Source: Asterionellopsis glacialis (lineage: Eukaryota > Bacillariophyta > Plagiogrammaphyceae > Rhaphoneidales > Asterionellopsidaceae). Taken from it: DNA of 64,000 bases. The DNA lies in the NCBI GenBank assembly GCA_014885115.2, contig WKLE02001048.1:12493-76492 (forward strand), in the 5' to 3' direction. This document shows, piece after piece, positions 1 through 63,571 of this stretch. The notes beneath the pieces were generated by a model, which searched no databases, was not told where the DNA came from, and was given only the letters and a program-made list of their open reading frames with translations. Both the position numbers and the translations under genes were made by a program. The stretch's first letter is position 1. The number at the start of each line of letters is the position of its first letter.

Positions 1-2363
1 GCAATTCGTTTTGGATTCCAACGTGTTTCAGTTGTCTTGTCACAACATACTTCACAAAGTGTCATATTTTTCTCTCCATTACCTTTAGGACAACGTTTGG
101 TTGCTGCAACCTCCATAGTTGCTAAATTCACTGCACAAGCCAAGTGTTGCATTTCTTTGTAAGACATTGAACGGAGAGATACAGGTAGATACAGGATTTT
201 ATCAAAGAAATCTTCTGTACGAGAGATTGTTGTTGTTGTTGTTGTTGTTGCGACGGATGATGCCCGAGGAGAAGAAGGCATCCTTTTTACATACTGTAAT
301 TGTGAAGTACCACGAGGTACATCATAACCATATTTTTGAAAAAGAATACGGCTTACAGCCTGTGGATCATTGACCGTTATAGGATACAACCAAAATTTGT
401 TTCGATTGCTAGTCATATAACTTTTACCACCCTTATCACCAACCACTTTTCTTGGAATACAAGCTGCAGTGATATTAGATGCACATTGTTGTTGTAATAA
501 TTTCGTCATGACGTTACAACGATCTATCCGTTGACGTACAGCATCAGCAACCTTTTGAGACTGTAATAATCGTCGATAAAGCAGAGAAAGTAAGGGTAAC
601 GAAGGACGTTGTCGTATGCGAACAATTAAAGCTCGTCGTCTTGTCTCTTCTATTTGATTTCGTTCTTGTGCAGTGAGTTTTGTTTGCTTCCTTTTCTTTT
701 TCTGTTCTTGTTCTTTTTTACTATTGTGTTTGTTGGTAGGAAAGCCACGAATGCAGTTTGATACTAAAGTATCAAAATTAATACCCAAGAATGGACACAT
801 CATGGCTATGAATCCATAGAGTAGAGGTCTTTCTACTATAACACAAAACATGATACTCTTGAGAAGTTTCCATAAATATTGTTTTGTTGTTTGGTGTTTG
901 TAGATGGACTGTTGATTACGCTTCATTTGAATAGCTGTTGTAGTCGTGGTCGTATCTTCATTGTTTAGAATTGCAACACCACCACCTAAGGCTGTTGCTG
1001 TTTTAATAGTTCCAAAGGAAAAGAAAGATATAGTTGCATATGGACTACCTAAATAGGATACATCGTCCTCATCGTTATCCTCGTCCTTGGATTGGAGAAT
1101 TTTTTTCCCATTCTCCTTCTTGTTATTCTGTTTGGGACTCATTGCAAGTCCAGCAAAACATTCTGCACAATCTTCTAGAATGTCCAATTGATGTTTTTGA
1201 GCTACTTGATGTATGCGTTTCATATCCTGTGGTGATGTACATACATACCCAAATGGATGAACTACCATAATGGCTACTGTTTTAGAGGATATGACATTGG
1301 TAATGGCATCTATGTCAACACCAATGGTACTACTATTAGTAGAAGACGACATGGACATTTCATCTTGTGGAGTAGTAGCATCTGTACTTGCGGCAGGAAT
1401 ATCGACAGGAATAACAGTTAAACCATGGTACAGTAAAACTTCTACCATACCAGGAACATTGATAGGTGGAACAATAATAATTTCTGATTGTGATGGATAT
1501 GATTTTGTGGTAAGATACAAATCTAAAAGAGATCGGACTGAAAGACCAACGACAACGGATGGTGATAATGATGGCTTGTTGCTGTTTTTGGTGGTGGTGG
1601 TGGTGGTGGTGGTGGTGCTTTCATGATGACTAGTATTCCTTTCTTGTAGTTGTTGCAACCATAAATTTTGGATTTGTTCTTCTTGATGGTAATACCGTGC
1701 ATTGGTAGTGGATGAATCCCTTTTCAAACATTGAAAGATACCATACATCAAATCACTATACGATATATCAAGTTGACCTCGTGGTAGTATAGGTTGAATA
1801 CCTAAAAAGGTTGATGATTTGGGCCTAATGGAAAGAGTTGCTGCAGTCGCAGTAGATGATTTTGATTGCGCCGACAATGACACCTCTTCCAGGGTCGTGA
1901 AGTTGGGTTCTTTTATCGTTTCACTATTTCCCTTTTGATAATACTCTTGCAACATTTGTTGACACGTTTGACCCAACCAATGATTTTGAGATGCTGCCAA
2001 TTCTACATAGGCTAATTGTGCTTCCATCCTCGACAATGTAGAACATTGTACCCATGCATCGTATTTGGCACGTGCTACCATATTGAATCTGGATGGAATA
2101 GTAGAATTGTCACCAGAATCGGTACTACAACCATGTGTAATATGTTTGTAAAGTCCATACATGCGAAGTTTATCTGCTTGAGATGTTTGTGTGAGTTCAC
2201 CCGTTACAGGAGTTTCACGAATTAAGGAAGCAACATTGCTAAACAATGTTTCTAAAAGAATCTCAGTATCATCATCCGTAGGAAGAGGATGATCTTTATC
2301 GTGGTTATCACTTTTGTTCATCTTTTGATTACTACTTTGCAATGACGGCCGACAAGCCGCCAT
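1..2363 (-). CDS. Acyl-CoA-binding domain fused to a DegT/DnrJ/EryC1/StrS-type PLP aminotransferase (3' end beyond window)
   Basis: An intronless open frame runs from an ATG at 2363-2361 to the window edge (787 codons with no stop). Residues ~32-115 match the acyl-CoA-binding protein fold: a DKLRMYGLYK helix (~64-73), a Gly-rich turn, then ARAKYDAW and an AYVELA helix. A Thr run from an (ACC)10 tract links this to a DegT-type aminotransferase. That part has ILEDCAECFAG, with Asp398 as the expected partner of the PLP ring nitrogen, and SFFSFGTIK, with Lys454 as the expected Schiff-base lysine. Downstream FWLYPITV and ILYLPVSL match the C-terminal subdomain of the family. A hydrophobic stretch at ~500-525 may touch a membrane. 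No targeting peptide is obvious. The family transaminates nucleotide sugars; the substrate here is unknown. ACBP would be expected to bind long-chain acyl-CoA. Domain calls are by eye and strong; the joint function is inference. Confidence 0.85.
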   Translation of the reverse strand, partial: MAACRPSLQSSNQKMNKSDNHDKDHPLPTDDDTEILLETLFSNVASLIRETPVTGELTQTSQADKLRMYGLYKHITHGCSTDSGDNSTIPSRFNMVARAKYDAWVQCSTLSRMEAQLAYVELAASQNHWLGQTCQQMLQEYYQKGNSETIKEPNFTTLEEVSLSAQSKSSTATAATLSIRPKSSTFLGIQPILPRGQLDISYSDLMYGIFQCLKRDSSTTNARYYHQEEQIQNLWLQQLQERNTSHHESTTTTTTTTTKNSNKPSLSPSVVVGLSVRSLLDLYLTTKSYPSQSEIIIVPPINVPGMVEVLLYHGLTVIPVDIPAASTDATTPQDEMSMSSSTNSSTIGVDIDAITNVISSKTVAIMVVHPFGYVCTSPQDMKRIHQVAQKHQLDILEDCAECFAGLAMSPKQNNKKENGKKILQSKDEDNDEDDVSYLGSPYATISFFSFGTIKTATALGGGVAILNNEDTTTTTTAIQMKRNQQSIYKHQTTKQYLWKLLKSIMFCVIVERPLLYGFIAMMCPFLGINFDTLVSNCIRGFPTNKHNSKKEQEQKKKRKQTKLTAQERNQIEETRRRALIVRIRQRPSLPLLSLLYRRLLQSQKVADAVRQRIDRCNVMTKLLQQQCASNITAACIPRKVVGDKGGKSYMTSNRNKFWLYPITVNDPQAVSRILFQKYGYDVPRGTSQLQYVKRMPSSPRASSVATTTTTTTISRTEDFFDKILYLPVSLRSMSYKEMQHLACAVNLATMEVAATKRCPKGNGEKNMTLCEVCCDKTTETRWNPKRI
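1590..1619. repeat. (GGT/ACC)10 trinucleotide microsatellite
   Basis: A near-perfect GGT tract on the plus strand lies inside the ACBP-aminotransferase gene. It encodes a run of about ten threonines in the linker after the acyl-CoA-binding domain. Length variation between alleles is likely and would stay in frame. Confidence 0.9.
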
Positions 2364-3069
2364 GTTGAATTTCTCACACCGACGGAGAGACCAAGCAGGA
2401 AGAAACCAAAAATAGGAACTAAATAAAATCACCCGTATGAGAAAATCCTTCAACACTTTCAGTATCCGACAGCCGAAGTACAGACAGTAGGTTTCGCGTT
2501 CGGCGCCTCGTTTCAATCGTTGATCGTTACGAATTTTGAGTCGGCATGATCCATACCGGTATCGACTAGTGAAAAATAATAACATACTTGGTACTGAATA
2601 GAAGTAATAATATTCGTACCTGGTAAATATTTGTTACCGTACAAGACCTCGTGGAATTTACCGAATTAGAATCCACAATCTACACATACCTGTACTCTAG
2701 TAGAGGGATCTTTCTGTCATTCGTTCTATTTTCTTGAGACAGGGCGAAGGACATACATACTCCGCCAGTTGTACTCTTTTGTGCTTTCTCGCCAAATTTT
2801 TTGAACGAACCACAAAAGACTGGACAGGACAATAAAGGCATCATCTCAGATCCTGCCCACAGAAGACACATTGGCTGACTCGTCGTCTCTTGTTGACACA
2901 CCACACATAGCAAAGAGAGTTGTGATTATTATTATCGTTTTCTGGATCGATCCCTCTTTGTGTGATTTGCTTTGTCGTTATCAAAGTGTACATAAAACGG
3001 AAAAAGCAAAAAAAAATAAAAAAAAAATCAATCCTATCGATTTTTAAAAAATTGAAGAGGATTATCATC
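2364..3069. other. Divergent intergenic region with a GTAC-rich cluster
   Basis: This 706-bp spacer separates two divergently transcribed start codons (2363 minus, 3070 plus), so it should carry both promoters. Positions 2551-2645 hold several ATACCGGTAT- and GTACCTGGTA-like palindromic words. The last 100 bp before minC are A/T-rich (poly-A blocks at 3007-3030). An in-frame ATG at 2962 would add a Lys/Ile-rich leader to MinC and is not preferred. I see no other gene here. Confidence 0.5.
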
Positions 3070-4476
3070 ATGGTCATCCGCACGACATCGACTGCTGCAG
3101 CTGCAACACTTCGAGGATGTCAACGTATCATTGGTAATGCTGACACTACAAGAAAAATACCACTCCTGGCAACAGTAGGAATGGTGTCGCCAAACACTAC
3201 TACTACAACAAATACTCAACAACGAAATCTGTCATCCTCGAAACAAGGAAATTTACAAAATTATCTTGATGTTTGGGTAGGATCAAATCCATCAACTTGC
3301 AAAAAGATAAAGAACAAAACACCGCCATCATCCATATCGCAATCATCATTACAACCAAAAACGACGACAACACAAAACTTACAGCAACAGCAACAACAAC
3401 AACAGCAACAACCTGTACGTTTATCCGCATCTTCCTATCTTATGCCAACCTTACGATTAGAACGCGGCGATACAGCTGAATCCTTACGTATCCGTATAAG
3501 TGCTGCGTTAGAATCATCCAATACCACAACCACAACTATTGTACGATCCATGTTATCTGGTAAAGAATCTTCGACCGGTCAAGTATGGAGAGTTCCCATC
3601 ATTTTAGATACCTCTGCCTTGGTACCGGATGGATCACCCCATTATGTACCACCACCCTTGGGATTGTTAACCAATGTGTACAACACGTTAGATACCAATT
3701 TTGGTATCCGTATTGTGGGTATATCCAATCCACCACCCACCATGGAACAGGAGGCCATGGAAACATTAGGATTACCATCCATCATGAGTAAAAGTCGTGC
3801 GCTGGACCGTCAAAAGGATTCGAAATTTCGTATCGAAGATGTTGTACGACTTGTTGTACAACAATTAGAAGACAAAGGTGGAATGACTCCAGAAGAGATT
3901 GATGCTGCCATACAACAACAACAAGAAAAAGATAATGACGAAGCAGCAGCAGCAGCAGCAGCTGAAGCGGAAGCAGCAGCAATGGCGGAGGCTGAGGCAC
4001 CTGAAGTCGAAGTAGAGGAACCATTGGTCGACCAAGACAACTCAAATGATGACGATGAAGAAACGTCATCGTCACAATCACCACCCATACAAGTGCCAGA
4101 ACCAGTATTAGGTGAAACTAAGGTATATCGTGGTTCCGTACGGTCAGGACAACAAGTTGCAGCTGATAAGAATCAATCACTTATTATTATGGGACAAGTA
4201 AATCCTGGTGGTGAGGTATTGGCAGATGGTGATATATATGTATTTGGCAAATTGCGTGGACGTGCCTTGGCTGGATTAGCCTCTGGCAATACTACTACTA
4301 ATGCGAATAATGCACGTATCTTTGCGAGTAGCTTTGATCCAGAACTTGTATGCGTGGGGGATAGTTTTACAACTATTGATGATGTAGAAGAAGAATTAGG
4401 ATTACGTCCAGGTGGACCAGCCATGGCTAGTCTGAATGAAGATGGTGAACTCATTTTTGAATCTGTATCATTGTAA
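3070..4476 (+). CDS. minC: Septum-site-determining protein MinC, probably mitochondrial
   Basis: The 468-residue protein ends in a clear MinC C-terminal beta-helix domain (~355-468). It has SGQQVAADKNQSLIIMGQV, then NPGGEVLADGDIYVFG, KLRGRALAG and IFASSFDPEL. Residues ~120-220 fit the N-terminal FtsZ-inhibiting domain (TLRLERGD, ILDTSALV, GIRIVGISN, LGLPSIM). Between them lies an Ala/Glu-rich acidic linker. A Gln run from CAA/CAG repeats (3384-3412) precedes the N domain. In bacteria MinC with MinD blocks FtsZ rings away from midcell, and Min proteins persist in mitochondria of some stramenopiles. The start at 3070 gives MVIRTTSTAAAATLRGCQRI, rich in Arg/Ser/Thr and without acidic residues, as expected for mitochondrial import. 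There is no signal peptide of the plastid type. The in-frame ATG at 2962 would bury this presequence. Confidence 0.92.
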   Translation: MVIRTTSTAAAATLRGCQRIIGNADTTRKIPLLATVGMVSPNTTTTTNTQQRNLSSSKQGNLQNYLDVWVGSNPSTCKKIKNKTPPSSISQSSLQPKTTTTQNLQQQQQQQQQQPVRLSASSYLMPTLRLERGDTAESLRIRISAALESSNTTTTTIVRSMLSGKESSTGQVWRVPIILDTSALVPDGSPHYVPPPLGLLTNVYNTLDTNFGIRIVGISNPPPTMEQEAMETLGLPSIMSKSRALDRQKDSKFRIEDVVRLVVQQLEDKGGMTPEEIDAAIQQQQEKDNDEAAAAAAAEAEAAAMAEAEAPEVEVEEPLVDQDNSNDDDEETSSSQSPPIQVPEPVLGETKVYRGSVRSGQQVAADKNQSLIIMGQVNPGGEVLADGDIYVFGKLRGRALAGLASGNTTTNANNARIFASSFDPELVCVGDSFTTIDDVEEELGLRPGGPAMASLNEDGELIFESVSL

Positions 4477-6386: not shown

Positions 6387-8549
6387 TTACAGACCCTCCT
6401 CTGCCATGGCCCGATACTCATCAAATGCAGTCGGATCTTGCAGAGCTCCCACATTTTTAGGTTCTACACCAGCAAAGAGGTCACGGACAGCAACTTCTAC
6501 TTTCTTCCCAGACTTGGTATATGGAATTTTCTGAACTTGCTTTATTAAGGCTGGGACATGAGAATCAGATGCACCAGCACGTATCGTTTCTTTAATCTCG
6601 TTGATAAGGTCTTTGCTAAGTAATTCATTGTCCTTGAGTTTGACAAATAAGACAACACGAACATCGCCGGCACGTTTACCGGTCTTGATTTGTTCACCAA
6701 TGACTAGGGAATCTTCTAGAGCACTAACTTGTTCTGCAAAGCGGTAGATTTCTCCTGTTCCAATACGAATTCCACCTGGCTTGAGTGTTGTGTCAGATCG
6801 TCCGTGAATAACAATACCACCACTGTTACCAACAGATCCAGTGGTTTCTATCAGATCTCCGTGGAACCAGAGACCATTATCTTCCTCAAAATAGGCTCCT
6901 CGGTACTTTGTTTTCTTTTCATCGTCACCAAAAAAACAAACAGGAGCAGCCACAAAGGGTTGACGACAAACAAGTTCAGCTTTTGCTCCAACAACAACGC
7001 TGTTTGTGTCACGATCATATGCACAGGCGTCCAAACCCAGCCCGAATGCTTGAAGTTCTCCCTTGCGGACTGGTAGGAGTGGATTTCCAAGAGCAAAACA
7101 TGAACAAATATCAGTACCACCAGAAATCGATGCAAGTAAGACATCATCCTTTACATAATTGTAGACGTAATCAAAGTCTTCCGGCAGGAGAGGAGACCCC
7201 GTGGAGAAAATCACACGAAGGCTTTCAAGATCATTATCTCTACCAGGACGAATACGCTTCCTACAGGCTTGAAGGTAACGAGGAGTGGTACCCATATGAG
7301 TGATTTTTTCATCTGCTACAAGGTCCCAGGGCGATGACAGTTTAGGATAAGCAGGAAATCCATCATAGCACACAACTGCTGCACCAGCAAACAAACTTGA
7401 TGTCATCCAGTTCCACATCATCCATCCACACGTGGTGAAGAATAACATTCTATCCTTTGGTCGGAGGTCTGAATGTAAAATAAGTTCCTTCGCATGCTGT
7501 AATAGAGTATTACCGGTGCCATGAGCAATACTTTTGGGCATTCCAGTAGTCCCAGAGGAATACAATACGAACTGAGGATGAGAAAAGTCAACGCGTGTAA
7601 ACCTTGGTTCAGGAGCACTCCCATCATCGTTAGAACCGTCCCTTAAGAAATCTTCCCAACTGACTATTAATGACTTAACCCGATCATTCTCCCATTCAGG
7701 AGCCTCATTTCCAATCATGTCAATCACGACAATCTTTTCCAGCGTTGGCAATTGTTCGACGAGCTGCTCAACTTTATCAACCATAGACATATTTTCACCT
7801 CTCAATACAAAACCATTTGTTGTAAATAGAACCTTTGGTCCAACTTGACTAAATCGATCAGCTACAGCCTGTGCTCCAAAGTCTGTAGAACACGACGTCC
7901 AAACTGCTCCTGTACTTGTTGTTCCCAACATGGCAAGGATTGTTTCACCAATATTGGGTAAATATGCTCCACAAGAATCTTCGGATGTTACTCCCATTTT
8001 TTCTAATGCTCTATTGAGCCGTCCAGTATCTTGTCTCAATTCTGAAAAGGTCCAACGTTGAATTTCATCACTACGACCTTCAGATACAACTACAAGTGCT
8101 TCTTCGTCACAAAGATATGATTCTGGAACACCATGTTTCAATAAATTTTCCGCAAAGTTCAGTTTGATATTAGGAAAGTATGTAACATCTGGCATGGTAT
8201 TTCCTTCTTTTGTTGGTGATGTTGATCCTGAATATTCGATTCCAACAAAGTCCAATAATTTCACCCAAAATTCATCACTATTATCTATAGACCATTTCCA
8301 TAATTCATCGTATCCTCCTGCTCCCTTCTCAGATTCTCCAAGAACGTCTATTTGGAATCGTTTCATAGCTGTTTGTTCCATATATTCTTCAGAGGGTTCC
8401 CACATGACAGAATTCTTTGTATCCATTGTTACAGTCATGTGCAGGGGTCTACGACGATGATTCTTCCTTGTTTTTTTTGCAGGTGACCATGCTTGTGCTG
8501 TATTGGTCAAGATCAATACTGTCGCGACAATGAATATCATGGTTGACAT
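6387..8549 (-). CDS. AACS: Acetoacetyl-CoA synthetase (acetoacetate-CoA ligase), plastid-type N-terminus
   Basis: This is a 720-residue ANL-superfamily adenylating enzyme, close to the usual acetoacetyl-CoA synthetase length (~650-700) plus a presequence. It has the P-loop SSGTTGMPKSIAHG (~332-345), FFTTCGWMMWNWM, the hinge motif GRSDTTLKPGGIRIGTGEIY and a C-terminal PYTKSGKK with the adenylation lysine. The ITHMGTTPRYLQ and LFAGAAVVCYDG segments fit acetoacetate ligases better than acetyl-CoA synthetases. The expected reaction is acetoacetate + ATP + CoA to acetoacetyl-CoA. The N-terminus is a signal peptide ending AQAWSPAKKTRKNHRRR, with Trp at +1 and a basic transit-like tail. This suggests plastid import, whereas animal AACS is cytosolic. 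The gene has no intron and is divergent to the PDZ/coiled-coil gene. Confidence 0.93.
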   Translation of the reverse strand: MSTMIFIVATVLILTNTAQAWSPAKKTRKNHRRRPLHMTVTMDTKNSVMWEPSEEYMEQTAMKRFQIDVLGESEKGAGGYDELWKWSIDNSDEFWVKLLDFVGIEYSGSTSPTKEGNTMPDVTYFPNIKLNFAENLLKHGVPESYLCDEEALVVVSEGRSDEIQRWTFSELRQDTGRLNRALEKMGVTSEDSCGAYLPNIGETILAMLGTTSTGAVWTSCSTDFGAQAVADRFSQVGPKVLFTTNGFVLRGENMSMVDKVEQLVEQLPTLEKIVVIDMIGNEAPEWENDRVKSLIVSWEDFLRDGSNDDGSAPEPRFTRVDFSHPQFVLYSSGTTGMPKSIAHGTGNTLLQHAKELILHSDLRPKDRMLFFTTCGWMMWNWMTSSLFAGAAVVCYDGFPAYPKLSSPWDLVADEKITHMGTTPRYLQACRKRIRPGRDNDLESLRVIFSTGSPLLPEDFDYVYNYVKDDVLLASISGGTDICSCFALGNPLLPVRKGELQAFGLGLDACAYDRDTNSVVVGAKAELVCRQPFVAAPVCFFGDDEKKTKYRGAYFEEDNGLWFHGDLIETTGSVGNSGGIVIHGRSDTTLKPGGIRIGTGEIYRFAEQVSALEDSLVIGEQIKTGKRAGDVRVVLFVKLKDNELLSKDLINEIKETIRAGASDSHVPALIKQVQKIPYTKSGKKVEVAVRDLFAGVEPKNVGALQDPTAFDEYRAMAEEGL

Positions 8550-9133: not shown

Positions 9134-12100
9134 ATGGCATCGGCTAACGATGGCACACCTGTGCATCTTGATTATTCTCCAGTAGATACTTTGGTATGTC
9201 TTTTTTGATTCTCAAAGCTGAAGTTGAAGAAGAGTGATAGAATCCTTTCAATTTACATGATGATTTGAATGTGCTTCAAACAAGCACATACAGCGGTTTC
9301 CGCTATAAATTGCTAATTTCTCTTCTCTTTTGCTCTTCCCTATTCAAAACCATGTAGCCAGTGCAAACTGTTTCGTTGACACCACAGCCGGCTAAAACTC
9401 CATCAAGAAAATTTGGAAAAGACATTTCGAATAATGCACCAGGTCGGAATAACAAAGTGTCTTCTGGAAAGAAAGTAGTTCGTATTCGAAGAGGCGTCAC
9501 ATCAGCAAAGAAGAAGAAGAAAAACACTCAAAGTTCAAAGAGTAGTAGTAGTAATACTTCCTCCCTCATGGAAGAAGTCGACGAAGAGGAAGCTGTGTCA
9601 ACGATTACTTATCAAAGTCAAGAAACCAGAGGGAGTCGTGGTATGGAAGGGAATACATCATCAACAGAGGTAGAGTATCATGTTCAGTTTGAATCAGGTC
9701 CTATTGGACTAAAGCTTGAACCTGTTGTTGAAAGTACGGGTAAAGAAATTGGATGTCGTATAGTGAAATTTGTGGATGGTGGACCTCAACGTCCAGGACA
9801 GGCTCGTAAATCTGGAAAAATCAAAGCTGGGTACGTGCATATATTTGCAATTCTTTTTCTTTTCTCAAACTTCTTGCCAACTCGCATGACTCACAACTAT
9901 GTTTCACCTTCCCCCCTCTTCATTTCCACTAGTGACTTACTGATTGCAATTGAGGGAATTGATGTGTCATCTTGGGAGTATGGTGATATTATTGCAAGGC
10001 TCAAATGGCCAAGTCAAGGTCGGCGTTTATCTTTCCGTAGTGTTTGGACTGAGAAAGCGCAGCCATCGTCGGCCAGTAGCAGTACTGGTATGGCAAATAC
10101 GGAGACTCCTGATACTGTAGAGGACATAGTGTCGGGTACCGGAGGTTCATCAACGGAAGAGGTTCTTTCTTCACAGATATTATCTTCTTTTCAACCAGAC
10201 CAAAAAGCAAGGTCGACAAATGACAAAACTAACGAGGAAGATACCTTGTCTGCCGATTTATCTACGGTCGTTCTCTCTGAGTCTCGAGAATCTACACCGT
10301 CACCTCCTCAACAAACACAACAACGCTCTGGAAAGGTCAAGGAGAAAAACACGGCAATCGTCGCGACACCGGGAAGGGCTATGTCTACTTCAAAGGTATT
10401 GAAGACAGTTGTGAAAGACGTCGCGTTGCCTGTGGCAGGTGTTGTTGCATCCTCATCATTGTCCCTGACAGCATCAGTAACTTCCGCAATGTCTACGAAA
10501 TTGGGTGAAGTTCTTGTTGGTCACTCAAATAGAGAATTTCATGATATTGTTCAACTCAAGACAAAACTCCTTGCTGAACTGAGTCAGGCCAAGGTTGCCC
10601 TGACCGCAAGCCAGGAAGAGCAAAAGCGGTTGCAAAAGGAGATTGCAGAGATTTCTAAGGAAAAGGAGGCAGAACGTAACGCCAAGGAAAAGCTCGAACG
10701 GGAACTGAAAGCTGCCAGGGAACATCAGGAGAGAATTGAAGATCAAATAAAGGACATGGAAAATCAAATACAGGTGCTGTCAGGGAGTCTTGACGAAGAG
10801 CGGCTTCAAACGAAGACAGCTCGTGATGATTTGGTTTCGCAGGTGGAAGAACTTCAACGTCAGAAACAACAGCTGGAGGTTTCATTCGAGAAAGAAAAGG
10901 CGTCTCTTGTAGCAAGAGAAAGTGCAGCTTCTGATCGAGAAAAGAATGCTCGAAGTCAGTTAGAGGAGACCGAGCATGAACTTGAGGCGAAGGTAAAAGA
11001 AATGTTGACCCGCATGGAGGAAATGGATAGTACTTTTACTGCAAGAAATACAGAATTGGAATCCTGTGTCCAAGCTTTACGAGATAAATTGCAACAAAAG
11101 ATTGCGGAACTTGATTCTACCAAGATATACGTGAATGAATTGCTTTCAAAGCAGGAAGATCTCACAAACCAAGCTGTCGAGTTTGATTCAATAGTCCAAG
11201 ACGCACGGAGGGAGAAGGACGAAGTAGCTACTGAGTTAGAGCAGGTTCGGATTGAATTGGATAGAGCTCGTGGTCGATTTGATGCTGTCCAAAACCAAGT
11301 GGATGAAACTAGAAGTACTCTTGAATCAACACTAAAGGAGAAGGACATTGAGATTGAGAATTTGGCTGATGAATTGAGTTCACGCGATGCATCTGTAGAG
11401 ATGCTCAGGACAATGGTAAAGGAGAAAGATACCGTACTCCATAACACTATGGCTGCAGTTGAAGCTGCTAGATCTACAGAGGAAAAGCTTGTTCATAAAA
11501 TCGAGGAACTTGAAGTCATTGTTAACGAAGCGAATGCTGAGAAGACCTTCCTAGATGACCAGTTGAGAAATTCACAGGAGGAACTCTCGGCGGCACTGAA
11601 TCGCGTTTCACAACTCGAGAAGCAACTGTCACAGATAAACCAAGAAAGTGAATCGAACCTCAATGAGCTCGCAACTAAGCTTGCGTCAACGGAAGCTGCC
11701 CTCGAAGTGGCAGAAAATGACTTACGAATAAAAAACGACAGAATCGAGGAACTTGAGAAACTCACGAACGAGAAAGACGATGCGCTTGTCGCCGCAAGTA
11801 TAAATTTCGACGATCTACAATCAAAGATGAAAGATTATTCTGTCATGATGGCCAACCAAAGCGAGGAAAAAATCCAAGATGAGGTGGATAAGCTGGACAT
11901 GCTATATTCGCAAGGACTGGAAGAAATGGATAGAATTCTCACCCAGAAGGATTCGCAAATTCAAAGTCTTGAAGAGAAAGTCATTTCACGGGAAGCGCTA
12001 ATCAAAGATACAAAGGATGACTTACAGAGTCAAAGAACCAGAATTGAAGAGCTCGAAAAGCTCTTGAACGAAAAGGAAGTGGCTTTAGCGGTCGCAAACA

Positions 12101-14880
12101 AGAATTCTGATGATCTGCGAACTAAAGTGGAAGAAGTTACAATTGCCATGGCAAATGAAAACAAGGAAAAGATTCAGAACGAAACGAACAAGCTGGATAT
12201 CTTCTATTTGGAGGAACTTGACAAAATGAATATGTGTATGGCAGAGAAAGATGCACAAATTCAAAATCTTGAACAGGAACTCGTTTCAAAAGAAGCCTTT
12301 CTTGAAGATACAGAAAATAGTGTACTGAAAAAAAGTGATAGAATAGATCAGTTGGAGAAACTTATGAATGAAAAAGATGAGGCTCTTGGATTTGCATCTA
12401 GGAAATCTGAAGATCTGCAAACACAGATGGAAGAACTTAAAATCACTCTGGCGAGTCAAAGTAGGGAGACCGTTGAAGACGAGGTTAATAGGCTACACTC
12501 GTTCTATTCGCAGGAAGTTGACAAAGTTATTGATAAAATGAAATCGTGTCTAACCCAAAAGGATTCTCACATCCAAAATCTTGAACAAAATATGAAAATG
12601 TCCAAGGAAGAAATAACTGTACTGAACAATGCGCTTCAGAAAATAAAACAGGATCATTTGGACGAGCTTCGGCGCTTTGAAAGTGAGAAGGAAGAAGCTC
12701 TCACTGATTTACAGGAATTCAGCGAAGAGGCCGTCTCTAGCATTTTAAACGAAAAGGAGGAAGAAATTTGTAGCCTGAAGAAGCAACTTTCGAAAGCGAC
12801 ATCTTCAGACTCTAAGTTGCGCAAGCGACTAAACGACCTCAGTAAAATCCACAGCAACGAAATCTCTAAGCTTGAACGCAAATTTGCTGTAGCCACACGG
12901 GAAAAGGAAGACATAGCTCGAGCCAATGCAGAGCTGGAACGGCGCCTGAACGAGGCTGATAGCTCGTCGGAAAAGAAAGAATTTGCACGCATTTCTAGTG
13001 CACTTCGTGAGGCTGAAGACCTTGTTTCAAAGCTTCATAGTGACTTTGACAGCGAGGAAGTCAGTTTATCAGATGTAACGGACAAACAGAGCAATGTATC
13101 CGGACAAGCACAAGAGAGATCAGTGAATGAAGTTGGTGGCCTGAGAAGCAGTTTCCTAGGAAAGCAGCTTGCGCAGGCGGAATCTCGTGCTAAGGATGCT
13201 CGTGCAGAAGCAGCACAAAGATTTAAGCGCGTGAAGAGCCTGGAAGCAGACCTAGAGGATATGTCCAGGGAATTCGAATTGCTTGTGAAGACAAATGAGC
13301 TTATGGAAGAGCGGTTGCGGTCCACAAGATCTGCTCAGCTTGCTGCTGAAGAAGAGGTCGAATCACTAGAGGATGTGCTTTCTGAAACCAAGAATACCCA
13401 GGAAAAGTTAGAAATGAAATTGACGCATGCGGTGTCCGAAAACAAATCCCTGTTTCAACAGCTAGAAGACCTGAAGAAGCATGTAGACGGCGTGGTGCAG
13501 GCAGGTAAAGACAAAGAAGAGAAGTATGAAGCCTCTATAAACAAATTGCACGAATCTCTATTAGAGAGCCAGAGCAAGCTGTCTGTTGCAAAAATCACCG
13601 AATCAAACTTAATAAACGAAAGAAATTCTCTGAAAATTGCATTGGACAGTACAGCATTGGAGATATCCAAACTTGAAAATAAGGTAACGGAAGTGCAAGC
13701 TCTCATGGATCAATCTCAGTCAAAACTTGAAGCATCAGAAAAACAATTTGCAAAAAAGCTTTCAAATATGCAGGACGAGCTGAGTTCTGTGAAGAACGAT
13801 CTTGATTCCTCCCAGAATCTGTTGGCTGTATGCGAAGGAAAGAGAAAACTGGTTGAAAGTGCTCTCCAAGCGAAAGAAACAGAAAAGGTATCTCTTGAGA
13901 GGGAAACTGAAAGCCAACGATGTCGTATTGAGAAACTGGAATCATCTCGAGATGAAGCAGTATCGAAACTAACTGCAGCTTGCGAGGTTGTTGACGAACA
14001 AAAAGAGGCGGTTCGATTGTCAGAAGAGAAGGTCACCAAGTCGGATGAAATTGCCCAAAAACATCGTGAGCAGACTGCTAAGATGGAACAAAGAATAGCC
14101 GAACTGGAAGAGGCTGCGCTGGAGCAAGAACATACAATTCGGGAGGAGGTCGAGAAGGCCCGTGAACTGCTCGAAAAAGAATCTAACGATGCAAGTCTAC
14201 TTGTCAACGAGTTGGAGGTTCAACTTGCGCAAGCAGCTTTGAAAATCGAGGGAGTGGAGGATGAGAACAGGGCTCTTTGCACCAAAATTGTCGAATGGGA
14301 AGAGACGTGCAGACGTGCCAAGGAACGCGAATCAGATGCTTTAGACAGGTGTGCACTTCATGCAAACGAAGTAAAAAAACTCGAGAACAAACTCGACGAA
14401 AGGAAAAACGAAACAGACCGATTGATAGCTCACTCTCAAGTTTTAGGATCTACCGTCACTCGATTGAGATCGGAATTGCTCATGAAAGAAACACCTTACA
14501 AACGGCCTCCAAAAGATACAACTCAACACAACGAAGAATCAGCGATAAGTACTTCAGCAGAGGATCAGCAAACTTTGTCTAGCATTGTTAATGAGGAAGA
14601 GACCAAACGATCAATGAGGGCCGCAGGTGCAAAAATGATGTGTCGTTTCATCGAGAAAAAGACCAGGGAGAATGAAATAGCACTATTAGGTTCGTCATAC
14701 AGACACTGGATGTGCGCAGCGACCACTGACCGGGCCGTCGCGTATCAAATGCAAGTGGCAAGAGCAATGGCACAACAACTAGAGACTACAAGAGAAAAAC
14801 TAGCTGTATTAAAAACGCATCTGAAACATGCTCATGGTGCGGAGCGAAAAAAATCAAATAATCTCCAAACGAGCAGATAA
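9134..14880 (+). CDS. Giant PDZ-domain coiled-coil protein
   Basis: The model is join(9134..9193, 9358..9830, 9933..14880), 1826 residues. Exon 1 encodes only 20 residues (MASANDGTPVHLDY...). Introns are GTATGT...TAG (164 nt) and GTACGT...TAG (102 nt). Removing the second intron rebuilds a PDZ domain at ~124-212 (GPIGLKLEP, then KIKAGDLLIAIEGIDVSSW). After a Ser/Thr-rich region (to ~370) the rest is almost continuous heptad coiled coil rich in Glu, Lys, Leu and Gln. It includes three in-register 100-residue repeats (~780-1080). A conserved-looking tail (MCRFIEKKTRENEIALLGSSY) closes it. There is no motor, membrane segment or kinase domain. The shape suggests a tether or scaffold (golgin- or centrosome-like), which is inference. 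It converges on the downstream ferredoxin gene, about 130 bp between stops. Confidence 0.85.
11740..12648 (+). repeat. Three tandem 300-bp repeats within the coiled-coil gene
   Basis: Units begin at 11740, 12040 and 12340, exactly 300 bp apart. Each encodes a version of RIEELEKL.NEK..AL, then a middle segment with EEK.Q.E..KLD..Y, then a QKDSQIQ.LE segment. The third unit carries about three extra residues. The copies have diverged at DNA level but remain in register at protein level, so this is an old internal duplication kept in frame. Confidence 0.88.
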
Positions 14881-58400: not shown

Positions 58401-61400
58401 AGTCACACAACGTCCTGAAATACTTGGTAACTAGAAGCGCGACGTGCTCAGGGTGAACTACAGAGAAAAGCCCAACAATGAATTCAACGACGTCTTTCGT
58501 TGAAGCTAAAGCCCTCAGAAGAGCTCTTTCGCTCTCAGCGTAAGCATTTCCTCCCTCAAGCGCCCGACCCATTAATCCACGTGCTAACATTTCTACGAAG
58601 GGTTCAAGGACCCGAAGATGCCGGCTATCGAGAATTGCTCTCTTTAATGAAGTCTTTTCAGTGCACTGTGTGTCGCACTTTAGAACCAATGATTTGAGAC
58701 ATAAGGGCAACAGGATGTCCATATGATCATAAAACGCAAAAAGCTGGTGTGATCTTTGCTGTGATGGGTCGAACGCTGCTATGAGCAATAGTGAATTTTT
58801 GTGGTCTGGTAGTCTCCTTGTGTCTTTCGTACTTTTTTCTTTAGTGGAATCCACATAATCGATCCATGATTGTAGCCATGAAACGATAATTGACTCGTAC
58901 AGATATGTTCTGTAGTGAGGCACTTTCATGTTCTCATCATCTCTGAGTCCAATAATATTTACTGAAGACTTCAAGACAGGAGAAGTGTCTGCACCACGAA
59001 GTTTCTCTAGGTAGTCTCGATTTGGAAATTCTTCTGACATTGTCCTGTCAGGAACGTAACGTTGGCAATCATCTTCAAAGTCAGAACCTGGACTATAAAT
59101 GCTTCCCGCGGGCTGCGAAAGAAATAATTAATAAAAAATATATATAAAAAGAAAATTCTTGGTTGACTTTTCTGAATGCAAAACAAAGATTTTCATAATA
59201 TCTTGATCTTACCTCATAGTCAACCAACGATTTCTTCGGAGACACTTCACGAGCATACCTGTCAGCCAGGCCCCTACTCTGTTCAAATGTACTATCAACA
59301 AGCTTTGGGCTTACAGGAGTTTGGGTGGTTCCTAATACGTTTGAGAAGCCTGGGGCTACACAGGGCGCGATCATAACTTGTGCAGCCGTTTTAAAACGTT
59401 GGGCAAGTGCACTGGTGTCGCTTAAGTAGCTCGTACTGTTTGAGGATTGAGCCTCGGATGCTCGACTAGTTTTACCTGGTACTGGCTCGTTAACAATGGT
59501 AGAGTCATCCATGAAATCCCATTTGCTCTTGTCATCTTCTACGTTGGTGACAGTATGATAAGTAGACATTGTGGCAATTGTTTCGTCGTCGTCCTCCATT
59601 TGTTTTGGGTGTGTCCCTTCTTGATATAACTCGGCTTCAAACTTCATTTTATCTATTTTGCTAGCACCATATGGAGTACGGGAGAAGGGAACGCCATTTG
59701 CAGTCAAGGCTGACCTTCTTTTTGAAATTCTTTGATCAATTTCATCTGGCATGGTACTTTTTCTTCTTAAATTAACACCGCTGTCAAGTGCATCCTCTAT
59801 ATCGTCGTCAGCATATTCATCGTGTGAGCCTCGGCTACCAGTGCGCGTTGGTTCCGGGGTTTCGAATGAGTTATATGATTGACTTTGTGTGAAGTTTTGA
59901 TTTTCTGATAGTGCAGAGCTTCTTTTGGCGGTTTCGGGACCCGGTGCTAAAAGAAACTCATCGTACGTATCGATGAAAGTTTTCAGGAACAGTTCTATTC
60001 TTCGTGAAGCATCACTGTTAGAAGGAGTGTCTTCCGTAAGCTTTAATTTGGCCTTACGAATAACTTCAAACAAGCTGCCTATGTTCTCTGTTGTAAATTT
60101 ACAGTTGCTTGCAGTCGAAGAGCTTGCATTTAAGGCGTCATAGCTCTGGGGTTCAAATACTCTAGACACATCAGACATGTCAAGTTCGGGAGCGCCGTGA
60201 TTTACCATGTTGCACAAATGCATATACATTAAAAACGGAAAGTACGCAAACAAAACATCCGCTGAGGCAGAGCCTAATATTTGCTGAAAGGACACACTTT
60301 TAACTTCGGGAATATTGGCACTGCTAACAGAACGGACGAGGGACAGTTCTCCTGGAGGCGCCCTTGTTTTGGAATCACCAGATGCTTCAATGAACGGAAA
60401 GTCTCGGAGAACAGTCGCCGCAGTGGCATTATTTACGTGTATTGAGCTGAACAGTCGAGTTTCTAGCTGCAACTCGAAATCACCAAGTTTGACCCTATGC
60501 AAACCATTCGGAATAACAGTTGTAACTCGGACACCTGACACTGTTTCCCGCGCGGAAGACGTACTAAGCGGTATTGTGGTTTCTGCTACTTTTTCTTTTG
60601 ATATTCCACAAAAACCTTCAGACTCATCGAAATTGGCGTCGAGTTCAACGATAAAAAGTGCAAACTCAAGGAAAAAACTTCCATCAAGAACCATTGGTAG
60701 CCGCACTTTGATTTCGTCACGCATTTTTACCCCAGTCTTGGACTTGCCATTCAGACTCTGTTTTTCGTGAAATAGAGGAACTTTGGTATAGATTTCATTG
60801 ATCATGGGTTGGTTGGACCAGGGAGCTGGATTGTGAAACGACTCCACCTCCTGGTAGAGTGTTTCTACTTTACCCGTTTCCTCATTTTTTGCGGAGATAT
60901 TTTTGACCAGCCGTACCCTAACAGAATAATGCTGGTTCTTGTTTGAATCTTTTATGCTGCCACGGATATCAATTTTATTTTTCACCTTGTCTGGGTCAAA
61001 CCGAAGGAGACGAGGATACAAATACAGCAAGTTCAGCAGCGACCGAAACAAGCTCGGGTTATCAAGGTTGTGCCTCTTCTCAATTCGTGGAGGCAGAAAC
61101 AATGTTTCTCGTACCTCAGATGCGTCAACATACCCGGATGGAAATCTAGCTTGTGGAAGACGCACCAAACTGGATCGCTTTCTAGACTGTTCATTGACGA
61201 AGCCTGTAACAGATTGAGGTGGGTTGACACTATCGGGGCTCATCATTATCGCACAATCACCGGAAATATCCACAACTAAACGAGGTAATGAGTTTGCATG
61301 CTCCGAGTTTTCAAAGGCGGCAAAAGCAGCGGGAGTTTGCAGTACTGCTTGCGTGAAGTCAACTCCAAGCACGGACGTAAATATTGTTGCGGTTCCAGCA

Positions 61401-63571
61401 AATGGTATAGTATCATGCTTACTCTGGAAGGAATTCGCACGAGCCTTTGTAGGACTCGATTTTTCAGGAGATAACCATTCGGAAGATGCGCCACTTTTGT
61501 CGTCTGAGTTGCTATCTGCTGTAGGGAAGGAGGCATCTGATACATATCCGTTTCCACTTTGCCCATTTTCTGCCACCATTGTGTCCTCTGCTGACATAGC
61601 ATCTGCTTTTTCTTCCGCGGCAACAGCTTGTAGCCGTTCTAAGAATTCATCGTGCGACTCGTGGCAATCCGGAAACGCGTATAGCTGCATTAACTGTGTT
61701 GGTCCCTCTGGCCAGCTGATTCTTGTCCCTTTTGTAGACGAATTGGCTCCGTCTTCCTCTTTACTCCCCGGCATGAAAGGTAATATCCCAAAGCAGAGAG
61801 GGCTCAAGAACTCTGTTCCGAATTTGTCGAATATCATCTTAGATCGTTGCTTTGCTGTTTCGCTGTCTACCGCGCATTCTTTGTCTTTGTTTCCAATTGC
61901 CATTTTTTCTAACTTTCGTTTCATACGTTTTGCGACACTTTTTTTCTTTTTAGGTGTAGACGAAGCACCTGTTGCTCCGCTATAATAAGGAGATGCTCCT
62001 GCAACTTGGGATGCTTTATAAATTTGTAGTACCACGTGAACTGATCGTATATCTCCACTGATTGCGTGTGGGTCGAACGGAAATAGAGCTTTGTGCTTCC
62101 GTTTGTGCCATGAAGCTTCTATATCTGCGCTTTCCTCCGTCCCAGACAAAGCATTGGCTGCCTCAAGGCGAATCATATCCTTCCAATTTCCAGCAGGAAA
62201 CCAGAATTCCTCCGTTACTTTACCATCTGGCAAGCTATACAAAGCGAGACTGCAAACTAGGGGTTCAATATTCCCGATATCAAACGAAACATTAAGAGGA
62301 CACGCAAGCATATTTTTCAATCCAGCAGGGCGATCATAAAAAGGACGGGGCCTCCATCCAAGTGAGTTACTGAAGGAAGAATCCAATGGCGGTGCCAATA
62401 CAGACGACCGTCGTGGTTTTGCCCACTTCTGATTTGCCAAAAATGAGTTGTTTCGTTGTTGAGAAGCAAATAACCTTACGTTGCGTTCCTTTGCCATCAT
62501 GAGTTCTTTCCCGGCAAGCGGCATTGCCTCCATCCCACCACCATTCCATTCTAGATTTTCTGTAAGAACAGGATCTATCGATTCATCTTGTACAGTAGTT
62601 CCCAATGCGTCACTTGTCGCGAGTACGATAAGTCGAGGACTTGCCTCTTCCCACTCAGTCTCGTGTTGGATTTCTTGTTGTTTCGACATGATTTCTTCTT
62701 GCGACGCATTGGGGAAGCCAACATCAGATCTTCTGGGCATTCTTCGTTTCCGATTGGACAAGAGAGGTGGATGCTTCGGCAAAACTGACATTGAAGCTTT
62801 TATTGGATCAATTGAACGATAACGCCCGTCACGTTTGGGCTTAGACCTTCTCCGTAGCATTTGTTTCCCGTCTGTCCTGATATCATCATCCCAAGGAACA
62901 AAAGCGTCCGCTTCAGCGCCCAAACTTGCGCTGAAATACAATTGTCGCACAGTCGATATCTGTTGAAATTTATGGAGCATTTTCAAATGCTGCAAGGATG
63001 GTGACATCTTTTTTTGTATGGATGATGTACGCATGGCGTCTGCCTCATCTGCCCAGGCTTTCCACTCCTCCACAGTTATGAGACGATTAGGTTCAAAAGC
63101 GCAACGAGTTTCTATATCAATTTCTCTTACTGACACTGTCATAGCATCTTGTTCGTGCTGAAAGTCTCTCGGTCTTCGTTTCTTCTTCGGTTGCTTCTTA
63201 GCTGAACCGTTCGATCTAGAACGCGACGAAAGATTCCTCGGTCTAGGAGGGGCTGACCTATTTGGAGACCTTGCCTGAGAATATTTATCCTTTGACGAAT
63301 TAACGTTTCTCATTTTACCTGGCGAGGGTTCGTCGGATCTCGATGAAAAAAAAGAGTTGCTTAGCCTCTCCTTTGTTGCAGAATAGAAGTCATTCTGGCC
63401 ATCCTCATCGAGCGTATCCACAGTTGGGGATGAGTACAGTTCAGGAATACTATTGCGCGAGTTTATACTTTCCTGCCGAGTTACCGGTGTTCTGTAAGAT
63501 AATGATCCTTGAGAAGAGCCGTCGTCCTGATCACGTCGACGGGAAGAGGAGTTGGGTGTTCTACTTCTCAT
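55493..63571 (-). CDS. DOCK-family (DHR-1/DHR-2) guanine nucleotide exchange factor
   Basis: The model is complement(join(55493..57568, 57652..59112, 59213..63571)), 2631 residues. Introns are 83 and 100 nt. The first 180 residues are basic and Ser-rich. FEPNRLITVEEWKAWADEAD recalls the DOCK N-terminal region. DHR-1 (~835-1010) shows LLNLLYLYPRLLRFDPDKVK, YSVRVRLVKN, EIYTKVPLFHE, MRDEIKVRLPMVLDGSFFLE and FALFIVELD, a C2-like lipid-binding fold. After a disordered stretch come helical repeats. Exon 3 ends in a DHR-2-like part (~2210-2610): LRWLLTLKNLHESKGQWVEA, GMEEWAYARLESLLK, SKRFYYHKSSSLELQ and a FPCALSRQRTL end. DOCK proteins activate Rac/Cdc42-type GTPases. The DHR-2 match is weaker than DHR-1, so exchange activity should be tested. 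Confidence 0.86.

What the first reader, a model, noticed from the sequence alone, without database searches (positions are those of the whole stretch)
1..2363. Acyl-CoA-binding domain fused to a DegT-type PLP aminotransferase
One uninterrupted frame joins an ACBP domain (~32-115) to a DegT/DnrJ/EryC1/StrS aminotransferase with its expected Asp398 and Lys454. ACBP usually stands alone or joins ankyrin, kelch or enoyl-CoA isomerase domains. DegT enzymes usually act on nucleotide sugars. The fusion suggests a transaminase working on, or regulated by, acyl-CoA, for example in lipid or amino-sugar-lipid metabolism. I do not know of a described protein with this pair.
Basis: partly seen in the sequence, partly recalled or inferred. 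Interest (0 to 1): 0.78.

Follow-up and report, generated by a model that had tools for sequence, protein, structure and literature searches.

The report
Diatom ether-lipid megaenzyme with built-in transaminase
The fused gene at the window's edge looks like the front end of a giant diatom enzyme whose relatives carry the core steps of ether-lipid synthesis plus an aminotransferase, which suggests that diatoms, and perhaps many sea animals, make an undescribed nitrogen-containing ether lipid.

Summary
The fusion is real: window 2363..3 (minus strand) is one open frame, 787 aa, cut by the window edge, with ACBP (54.4 bits) and DegT (48.8 bits) above Pfam cut-offs; Asp398 and Lys454 are invariant in 35 aligned relatives. 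But it is only about a third of the protein. Full-length diatom relatives (2211-2374 aa) read ACBP - DegT - fatty acyl-CoA reductase (FAR) - PlsC/GNPAT-type acyltransferase - alkyl-DHAP synthase (AGPS). The window's own 3' part reads N, so those later domains are inferred. Two lines tie this DegT to ether lipids: 74 of 120 listed standalone relatives end in a peroxisome-type signal, and in Gemmatimonadota DegT is the third gene after AGPS and FAR-PlsC in three operons, where three others hold an SDR reductase. Best reading: DegT aminates the C2 ketone of alkyl-DHAP instead of its being reduced, giving a 2-amino-2-deoxy ether lipid. Architecture well supported; reaction inferred; no such product found in the searches made.

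The parts
3..2363 (-). Open frame of the fusion, 787 aa visible, no stop, truncated at the window edge (the held contig reads N beyond it)
1998..2243 (-). Acyl-CoA-binding domain (residues 41-122), with Y69, Y72, K73 and K100
   Evidence: Pfam PF00887 54.4 bits; column check; helices between 30 and 147 in the model
105..1793 (-). DegT-type PLP aminotransferase fold (residues 191-753; Pfam core 345-481 = window 921-1331)
1170..1172 (-). Asp398, the aspartate expected to hold the PLP pyridine nitrogen (role from general knowledge)
   Evidence: same residue in 35 of 35 rows
1002..1004 (-). Lys454, the expected PLP Schiff-base lysine (FSFGTIKT; role from general knowledge)
   Evidence: same residue in 35 of 35 rows; aligned with a lysine of 7n63
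486..887 (-). Helical stretch in the C-terminal half of the DegT domain (residues 493-626), partly hydrophobic (504-522); possible membrane or lipid contact
   Evidence: model secondary structure; mean hydropathy 1.78 at 504-522; its role is inference

Best explanation
The gene encodes a diatom ether-lipid assembly line. The ACBP holds acyl-CoA; FAR turns one acyl-CoA into fatty alcohol; the PlsC/GNPAT-type domain puts another on DHAP; AGPS swaps acyl for alkyl to give alkyl-DHAP; and the DegT domain, with PLP and an amino donor, converts the C2 ketone of alkyl-DHAP to an amine where the ordinary pathway would reduce it to an alcohol. The product, 1-O-alkyl-2-amino-2-deoxyglycerol 3-phosphate, would then be N-acylated to a sphingolipid-like amide ether lipid. 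Shown here: the ACBP-DegT fusion in the window, and the domain order in relatives. Inferred: that the hidden 3' part of the window's own gene holds FAR, acyltransferase and AGPS (about 0.9), and that the aminotransferase acts on alkyl-DHAP (about 0.5).
For: Architecture: of 102 relatives found with residues 640-1357 of P0013, 28 carry both AGPS domains (PF01565+PF02913) and 22 of these also PF00887, PF01041, PF07993 and PF01553, among them entries of Fistulifera solaris, Nitzschia inconspicua, Seminavis robusta, Skeletonema marinoi and a Nitzschia sp.; the order was checked on four, one of them (P0176) without an ACBP hit and one (P0171) with a partial last domain. Strict patterns in 13 AGPS-bearing relatives: HRS..DF in 13, FSFG.IK in 10, HHHG[VI]G in 10, EG[TS]RSR in 8. 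Their AGPS domain is 39.7-42.8% identical to the L023 AGPS in 8 of 8 tested (E 1.2e-102 or better), and the L023 AGPS matches the solved peroxisomal alkyl-DHAP synthase 4bby at E 5.2e-169. In the window's genome no separate AGPS rang (one search gave one weak match of 29.2 bits with stops inside) and no other copy of the FAR-acyltransferase part. Operons: AGPS, FAR-PlsC, DegT in L023 and L039 and, spread over two contigs of one genome, L105/L106; the same third slot holds an SDR in L098, L101, L102, as in the M. xanthus operon MXAN_1676-1674 (PMC9131029, passages). Localisation: 74 of 120 listed relatives of the starfish DegT end in a PTS1-type tripeptide, 59 of them SKL, against 0.36% of positions inside the same proteins. 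Chemistry (established knowledge, not from a call): AGPS needs the C2 ketone of acyl-DHAP, so amination should follow it.
Against: No activity or product is known; the literature searches gave none. The window's own FAR, acyltransferase and AGPS are not visible. 5 of the 28 AGPS-bearing relatives have no PF01041 in their precomputed domains (P0164, P0177, P0198, P0199, P0236). Most bacterial relatives are not beside ether-lipid genes: over the ORFs of 80 loci AGPS was found in 4 and FAR in 3 (in L062 on the opposite strand, tail to tail), and in 11 of the 80 my ORF caller did not return the DegT frame. 30 of 36 DegT genomes tested (36 of the 80) lack AGPS at E<=1e-70. So the subfamily as a whole is not tied to alkyl-DHAP. 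Of 11 Gemmatimonadota genomes with AGPS, 7 have this DegT at E<=1e-50, but in G152, G154 and G163 it lies on another contig than AGPS, and G163 has both the SDR operon and a DegT elsewhere, so the swap is not exclusive; the DegT rate in genomes without AGPS was not measured. Ketoacyl synthase genes near DegT in L107 and L062 point to other keto lipids. 0 of the 22 full-length fusions end in PTS1, though six of them stop before the AGPS end motif, so their location is unknown. The empty AGPS search of the genome is weak, introns being ignored.
Confidence: 0.55

Rival explanations
1. FAR stops at the aldehyde and DegT converts the fatty aldehyde to a fatty amine, which the acyltransferase turns into an N-acyl amide; AGPS works apart from this.
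For: FAR and DegT share one chain in the relatives, and in L023 and L039 the DegT start codon overlaps the FAR-PlsC stop codon. Aldehydes are chemically possible aminotransferase substrates (general knowledge).
Against: L042 has AGPS then DegT with no FAR in the 11.4 kb fetched; DegT stands in the SDR slot after AGPS and FAR-PlsC; AGPS needs alcohol from FAR (PMC13256971, passages).
Confidence: 0.15
2. DegT acts on another keto lipid: DHAP or acyl-DHAP (giving serinol phosphate or an acyl-serinol lipid), or a beta-keto chain.
For: Ketoacyl synthase and PlsC genes before DegT in L107, ketoacyl synthase upstream in L062; Planctomycetes and Acidobacteria pair or fuse DegT with a FAD_binding_4 protein whose best solved match is DprE1, a ketone-forming oxidase (the reaction is recalled); most DegT genomes tested lack AGPS.
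Against: In the diatom chain AGPS is present and needs a C2 ketone, so earlier amination would starve it (inference); no ketoacyl synthase domain was reported in the four long fusions scanned.
Confidence: 0.2
3. The DegT domain is a scaffold or regulator, or keeps a PLP fold with a non-transaminase role, and the enzyme makes ordinary alkyl-DHAP.
For: Identity to solved DegT enzymes is low (13-20% in the 50 rows) and the helical stretch is unusual; a shared fold shows no function.
Against: Asp398, Lys454 and twelve further columns are reported invariant over 35 rows from diatom fusions, animals, oomycetes, a fungus, Chromera and bacteria.
Confidence: 0.1

Closest known systems
FARAT (FAR + DHAP acyltransferase of Dictyostelium and other protists) and MXAN_1675 of Myxococcus
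   Same: FAR followed by a GNPAT-like acyltransferase on one chain, in ether-lipid synthesis (PMC13256971 and PMC9131029, passages read); the middle of the diatom chain has this order
   Different: No ACBP, aminotransferase or AGPS on the same chain in those passages
Alkylglycerone-phosphate synthase (AGPS, alkyl-DHAP synthase)
   Same: C-terminal FAD_binding_4 + FAD-oxidase_C of the full-length relatives; 39.7-42.8% identity to the L023 AGPS in 8 of 8, itself E 5.2e-169 to 4bby
   Different: A separate protein in mammals, Dictyostelium and M. xanthus (same papers); here the tail of a chain of 2211-2374 aa
ElbD, multidomain ether-lipid enzyme of Myxococcus
   Same: Several lipid activities on one protein: FAR1-like, acyl-CoA synthetase, ACP and acyltransferase domains (PMC9131029, passages)
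   Different: Different domain set: acyl-CoA ligase and ACP instead of ACBP, DegT and AGPS
DegT/DnrJ/EryC1/StrS sugar aminotransferases (GDP-perosamine synthase, ArnB, PseC, KabA/NtdA)
   Different: 13-20% identity; helical stretch with a hydrophobic segment; fused or, in some bacteria, operonic with ether-lipid enzymes; most listed animal and protist relatives carry a PTS1-type ending

Membership tests
ACBP (PF00887) | Profile match over the curated cut-off | tested here: met
   54.4 bits against 28.3, residues 41-122
ACBP (PF00887) | Acyl-CoA ligand residues (Y..YK and AK-aromatic..W; their role is recalled) | tested here: met
   Y69, Y72, K73, K100 present; K73 and K100 in 18 of 18 rows that have the columns
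DegT/DnrJ/EryC1/StrS aminotransferase (PF01041) | Profile match over the curated cut-off, and fold | tested here: met
DegT/DnrJ/EryC1/StrS aminotransferase (PF01041) | PLP lysine and aspartate | tested here: met
   K454 and D398 in 35 of 35 rows
DegT/DnrJ/EryC1/StrS aminotransferase (PF01041) | Aminotransferase activity on a keto substrate | not testable with these tools
   needs an enzyme assay
Nucleotide-sugar aminotransferase equivalogs (NCBIfam) | Score over an equivalog cut-off | tested here: not met
   best 41.4 bits against a cut-off of 375
Ether-lipid (alkyl-DHAP) synthase: FAR + DHAP acyltransferase + AGPS | FAR, acyltransferase and AGPS domains in full-length relatives | tested here: met
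   with ACBP and DegT in 22 of 102 relatives, order checked on four
Ether-lipid (alkyl-DHAP) synthase: FAR + DHAP acyltransferase + AGPS | The same domains in the window's own gene | tested here: inconclusive
   the contig reads N beyond the window edge; no copy found elsewhere in the genome
Ether-lipid (alkyl-DHAP) synthase: FAR + DHAP acyltransferase + AGPS | Peroxisomal location (usual for the eukaryotic pathway) | tested here: inconclusive
   0 of 22 full-length fusions end in PTS1, six of them stopping early; 74 of 120 listed standalone DegT relatives do

The most novel reading that the evidence does not exclude
Diatoms, with a five-part megaenzyme, and many invertebrates and protists, with a standalone peroxisomal DegT working beside peroxisomal FAR1, GNPAT and AGPS, make an undescribed class of ether lipids in which the sn-2 oxygen is replaced by nitrogen (1-O-alkyl-2-amino-2-deoxyglycerol lipids, N-acylated to sphingolipid mimics). 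A transaminase takes the place of the alkyl-DHAP reductase.
Probability: 0.42. Interest if true: 0.93.

Novelty: new variant of a known kind. Interest (0 to 1): 0.77.

Why it matters
It puts the route to alkyl-DHAP on one polypeptide in a major group of marine algae and adds a step, amination, that none of the ether-lipid passages I read mentions. It predicts a lipid class that can be looked for directly by mass spectrometry. It also gives a hypothesis for an uncharacterised PLP enzyme with a peroxisome-type ending found in echinoderms, molluscs, annelids, amphioxus, cnidarians, rotifers and oomycetes, and it shows that database names such as 'alkyldihydroxyacetonephosphate synthase' hide the aminotransferase.

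Tried and rejected
Considered and dropped. (1) Chimeric assembly or chance frame: rejected, because ACBP and DegT share a chain in 6 of the 22 relatives and in many. (2) The 5041-residue open frame reported: artefact of translating N. (3) Nucleotide-sugar aminotransferase: the fold agrees, but NCBIfam equivalog cut-offs are missed by far (41.4 bits against 375 for the best), and the fused partners are lipid enzymes. (4) FAD_binding_4 neighbours in Planctomycetes as true AGPS: not supported; the best solved match is DprE1 and covers about residues 88-241 only. (5) A conserved bacterial neighbourhood in general: clustering of 967 neighbour ORFs gave no partner family in more than 9 of 80 loci, so the operon evidence rests on few loci. 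(6) Literature on DegT in ether lipids or on such amino ether lipids: nothing found in searches (open-licence PMC papers only; listings seen, passages read of PMC9131029, PMC13256971 and PMC9244630). (7) Myxococcota-side operons: the search of the phylum of G028 failed twice.

Limits of the counts. Protein searches scored only the 7992 and 7990 candidates that share most words, and one search was limited to lengths of about 746-2375 aa. The tree is a quick one without bootstrap, 68 rows; the 16 rows that I labelled as fusions (several are unnamed metagenome proteins) form one clade at SH-aLRT 100, while 30 of 65 inner branches are open. The PTS1 count uses the 120 listed of 143 matches, bacterial rows and fragments included. 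Of the AGPS loci in Gemmatimonadota, L100 is too short to show the third gene, L099 has no FAR-acyltransferase beside AGPS, and L062, L103 and L104 have a FAR gene in another arrangement (only L062 was scanned with Pfam).

Full report

What the window does not show. The window is bases 12493-76492 of contig C431 in a 40.3 Mb, 1503-contig assembly. All bases of that contig left of the window read N in the held copy, so the frame has no visible end. Whether this is an assembly gap or withheld sequence I cannot tell.

Relatives complete the protein. A search with the 787 residues returned 22 proteins; six carry both ACBP and DegT, and most also carry PF07993 (fatty acyl-CoA reductase, FAR), some PF01553 (PlsC-type acyltransferase); one is from a named diatom, Cyclotella meneghiniana. 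In P0011 and P0013 the order is ACBP-DegT-FAR-PlsC. A search with the FAR-PlsC part of P0013 returned 102 proteins. Of these, 28 carry both Pfam domains of alkylglycerone-phosphate synthase (AGPS), and 22 of the 28 also ACBP, DegT, FAR and PlsC; 23 of the 28 have a DegT hit. The 22 are 2211-2374 aa long and include entries of Fistulifera solaris, Nitzschia inconspicua, Seminavis robusta, Skeletonema marinoi and a Nitzschia sp.; database names, where given, are alkyldihydroxyacetonephosphate synthase, alkylglycerone-phosphate synthase or FAD binding oxidase. In the Fistulifera protein the order is ACBP 18-96, DegT 186-384, FAR 718-992, PlsC 1249-1374, FAD_binding_4 1755-1896, FAD-oxidase_C 1943-2211. 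Many of the shorter hits stop soon after the PlsC motif, which may reflect introns or contig ends; this is inference. Two hydrophobic segments lie between DegT and FAR in Fistulifera, one in Seminavis and one in Skeletonema.

AGPS identity. The Gemmatimonadota AGPS of L023 matches the solved peroxisomal alkyl-DHAP synthase 4bby at E 5.2e-169, and the AGPS domain of 8 of 8 fusions tested is 39.7-42.8% identical to it. With it as query nothing rang in the window's own genome, a second AGPS (L062) gave one short weak match with stop codons inside, and a four-domain relative found only the window's gene. This fits an AGPS and FAR-PlsC that lie in the N stretch, but an empty search of an intron-bearing genome is weak evidence, and the tool says so.

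Who else has this DegT. A search with the starfish relative gave 143 matches, 120 listed, from echinoderms, molluscs, annelids, nemerteans, amphioxus, a tunicate, a soft coral and an anemone, rotifers, a tardigrade, oomycetes, a fungus, Chromera and bacteria. Where named, they are mostly 'uncharacterized' or bear sugar-aminotransferase names. Of the 120, 74 end in [SAC][KRH][LM], 59 of them in SKL; inside the same proteins such a tripeptide occurs at 0.36% of positions. This is a peroxisome signal by consensus (recalled), and GNPAT, FAR1 and AGPS of the mammalian ether-lipid route work in or on the peroxisome (PMC9131029, passages). The full-length diatom fusions do not end this way (0 of 22), but six of the 22 stop before the AGPS end motif.

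Bacterial gene order. A genome scan gave 80 bacterial loci. In L023 and L039 (Gemmatimonadota) the order on one strand is AGPS, FAR-PlsC, DegT, with the DegT start codon overlapping the FAR-PlsC stop; in L023 a PlsC acyltransferase follows directly. L042 has AGPS directly before DegT; in L062 DegT meets, tail to tail, an AGPS on the other strand that follows a FAR-ligase gene. In Planctomycetes (L041, L046, L047, L048, L056, L060) a FAD_binding_4 protein precedes DegT, and in two Acidobacteria (L066, L067) it is fused to it. Most of the 80 loci showed no such partner: AGPS was found in 4 and FAR in 3; in 11 my ORF caller did not return the DegT frame. Of 36 DegT genomes searched, 6 have AGPS at E<=1e-70, and in 4 of these 6 it is next to DegT.

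The third-slot comparison. Among 395 genomes of the phylum of L023, 10 have AGPS at E<=1e-70; a search of the order added G451. Where AGPS and FAR-PlsC are together and the third gene is visible, it is DegT in L023, L039 and L106 (G451, where AGPS and the start of FAR lie on another contig, L105), and an SDR of the NAD-dependent epimerase kind in L098, L101 and L102, the three SDRs being 50-58% identical to each other. M. xanthus has the SDR version, MXAN_1676-1675-1674 (PMC9131029, passages). Alkyl-DHAP reductases of eukaryotes are SDRs (PMC13256971, passages). So DegT stands where a ketone-reducing enzyme is expected. Against a strict swap: of the 11 AGPS genomes 7 have this DegT at E<=1e-50, but in G152, G154 and G163 it is on another contig than AGPS, and G163 has the SDR operon too. 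PlsC-type genes adjoin DegT in L023, L106, L107 and L108 (L108 by similarity only), and ketoacyl synthase genes lie upstream in L107 and L062.

Mechanism. AGPS works on acyl-DHAP and, by its known chemistry, needs the C2 ketone (established knowledge). Amination of DHAP or acyl-DHAP would stop it. The ketone that survives AGPS is that of alkyl-DHAP, so a transaminase on the same chain, or in the slot of the reductase, most simply acts there, giving 1-O-alkyl-2-amino-2-deoxyglycerol 3-phosphate. A PlsC-type acyltransferase could then make an amide. Shown: domain order in relatives, conserved PLP residues, operon order, peroxisome-type endings. Inferred: substrate, donor, product and the window gene's own 3' part.

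Comparison with the known. FAR-acyltransferase fusions are known as FARAT in protists and as MXAN_1675, and ElbD is a multidomain ether-lipid enzyme (PMC13256971, PMC9131029; passages). AGPS is known as a separate protein. I found no paper that describes ACBP or DegT on such a chain or an amino ether lipid of this kind (searches; open-licence papers only). I call it a new variant of a known kind, with a bold reading that would make it a new lipid class.

Scores. Interest 0.77: a lipid biochemist would be surprised by the one-chain pathway and by an aminotransferase in it, and the prediction is directly testable; it is held back by the hidden 3' end and the absence of biochemical evidence.

Noticed in passing
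window 2962-4476 (+): ORF with a MinC C-terminal domain (PF03775, 78.8 bits): a MinC-like division protein gene in a eukaryotic contig, directly beside the fusion gene.
   Followed up: no
window 6387-8549 (-): Acetyl-CoA-synthetase-like AMP-binding protein (PF00501, PF16177).
   Followed up: no
window 9361-14880 (+) and 59093-63571 (-): Long open frames of 1839 and 1492 aa with no Pfam match at 1e-5.
   Followed up: no
L066 9944-12589 and L067 9935-12589: Acidobacteria: DegT of this subfamily fused to a FAD_binding_4 protein (882-885 aa); six Planctomycetes loci have the pair as adjacent genes. An oxidase plus transaminase pair could turn an alcohol into an amine (inference).
   Followed up: partly
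L025, L071, L086, L090: HlyD-type and AcrB-type exporter gene families near DegT of this subfamily in a cyanobacterium, an alphaproteobacterium and two Pirellulaceae (clusters; one member of each scanned).
   Followed up: no
L107 and L108 (two genomes of the phylum of L023): DegT directly after a PlsC-type acyltransferase, with a ketoacyl synthase upstream in L107: another lipid setting for this DegT without AGPS next to it.
   Followed up: partly
P0236 (1143 aa): Metagenome protein with PlsC and AGPS domains only (PF01553, PF01565, PF02913), possibly the back half of the fusion as a separate prediction.
   Followed up: no
L038, L040, L049, L084: Records titled Bordetella parapertussis MAG that share neighbourhood gene families with betaproteobacterial MAGs; the label looks doubtful.
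   Followed up: no
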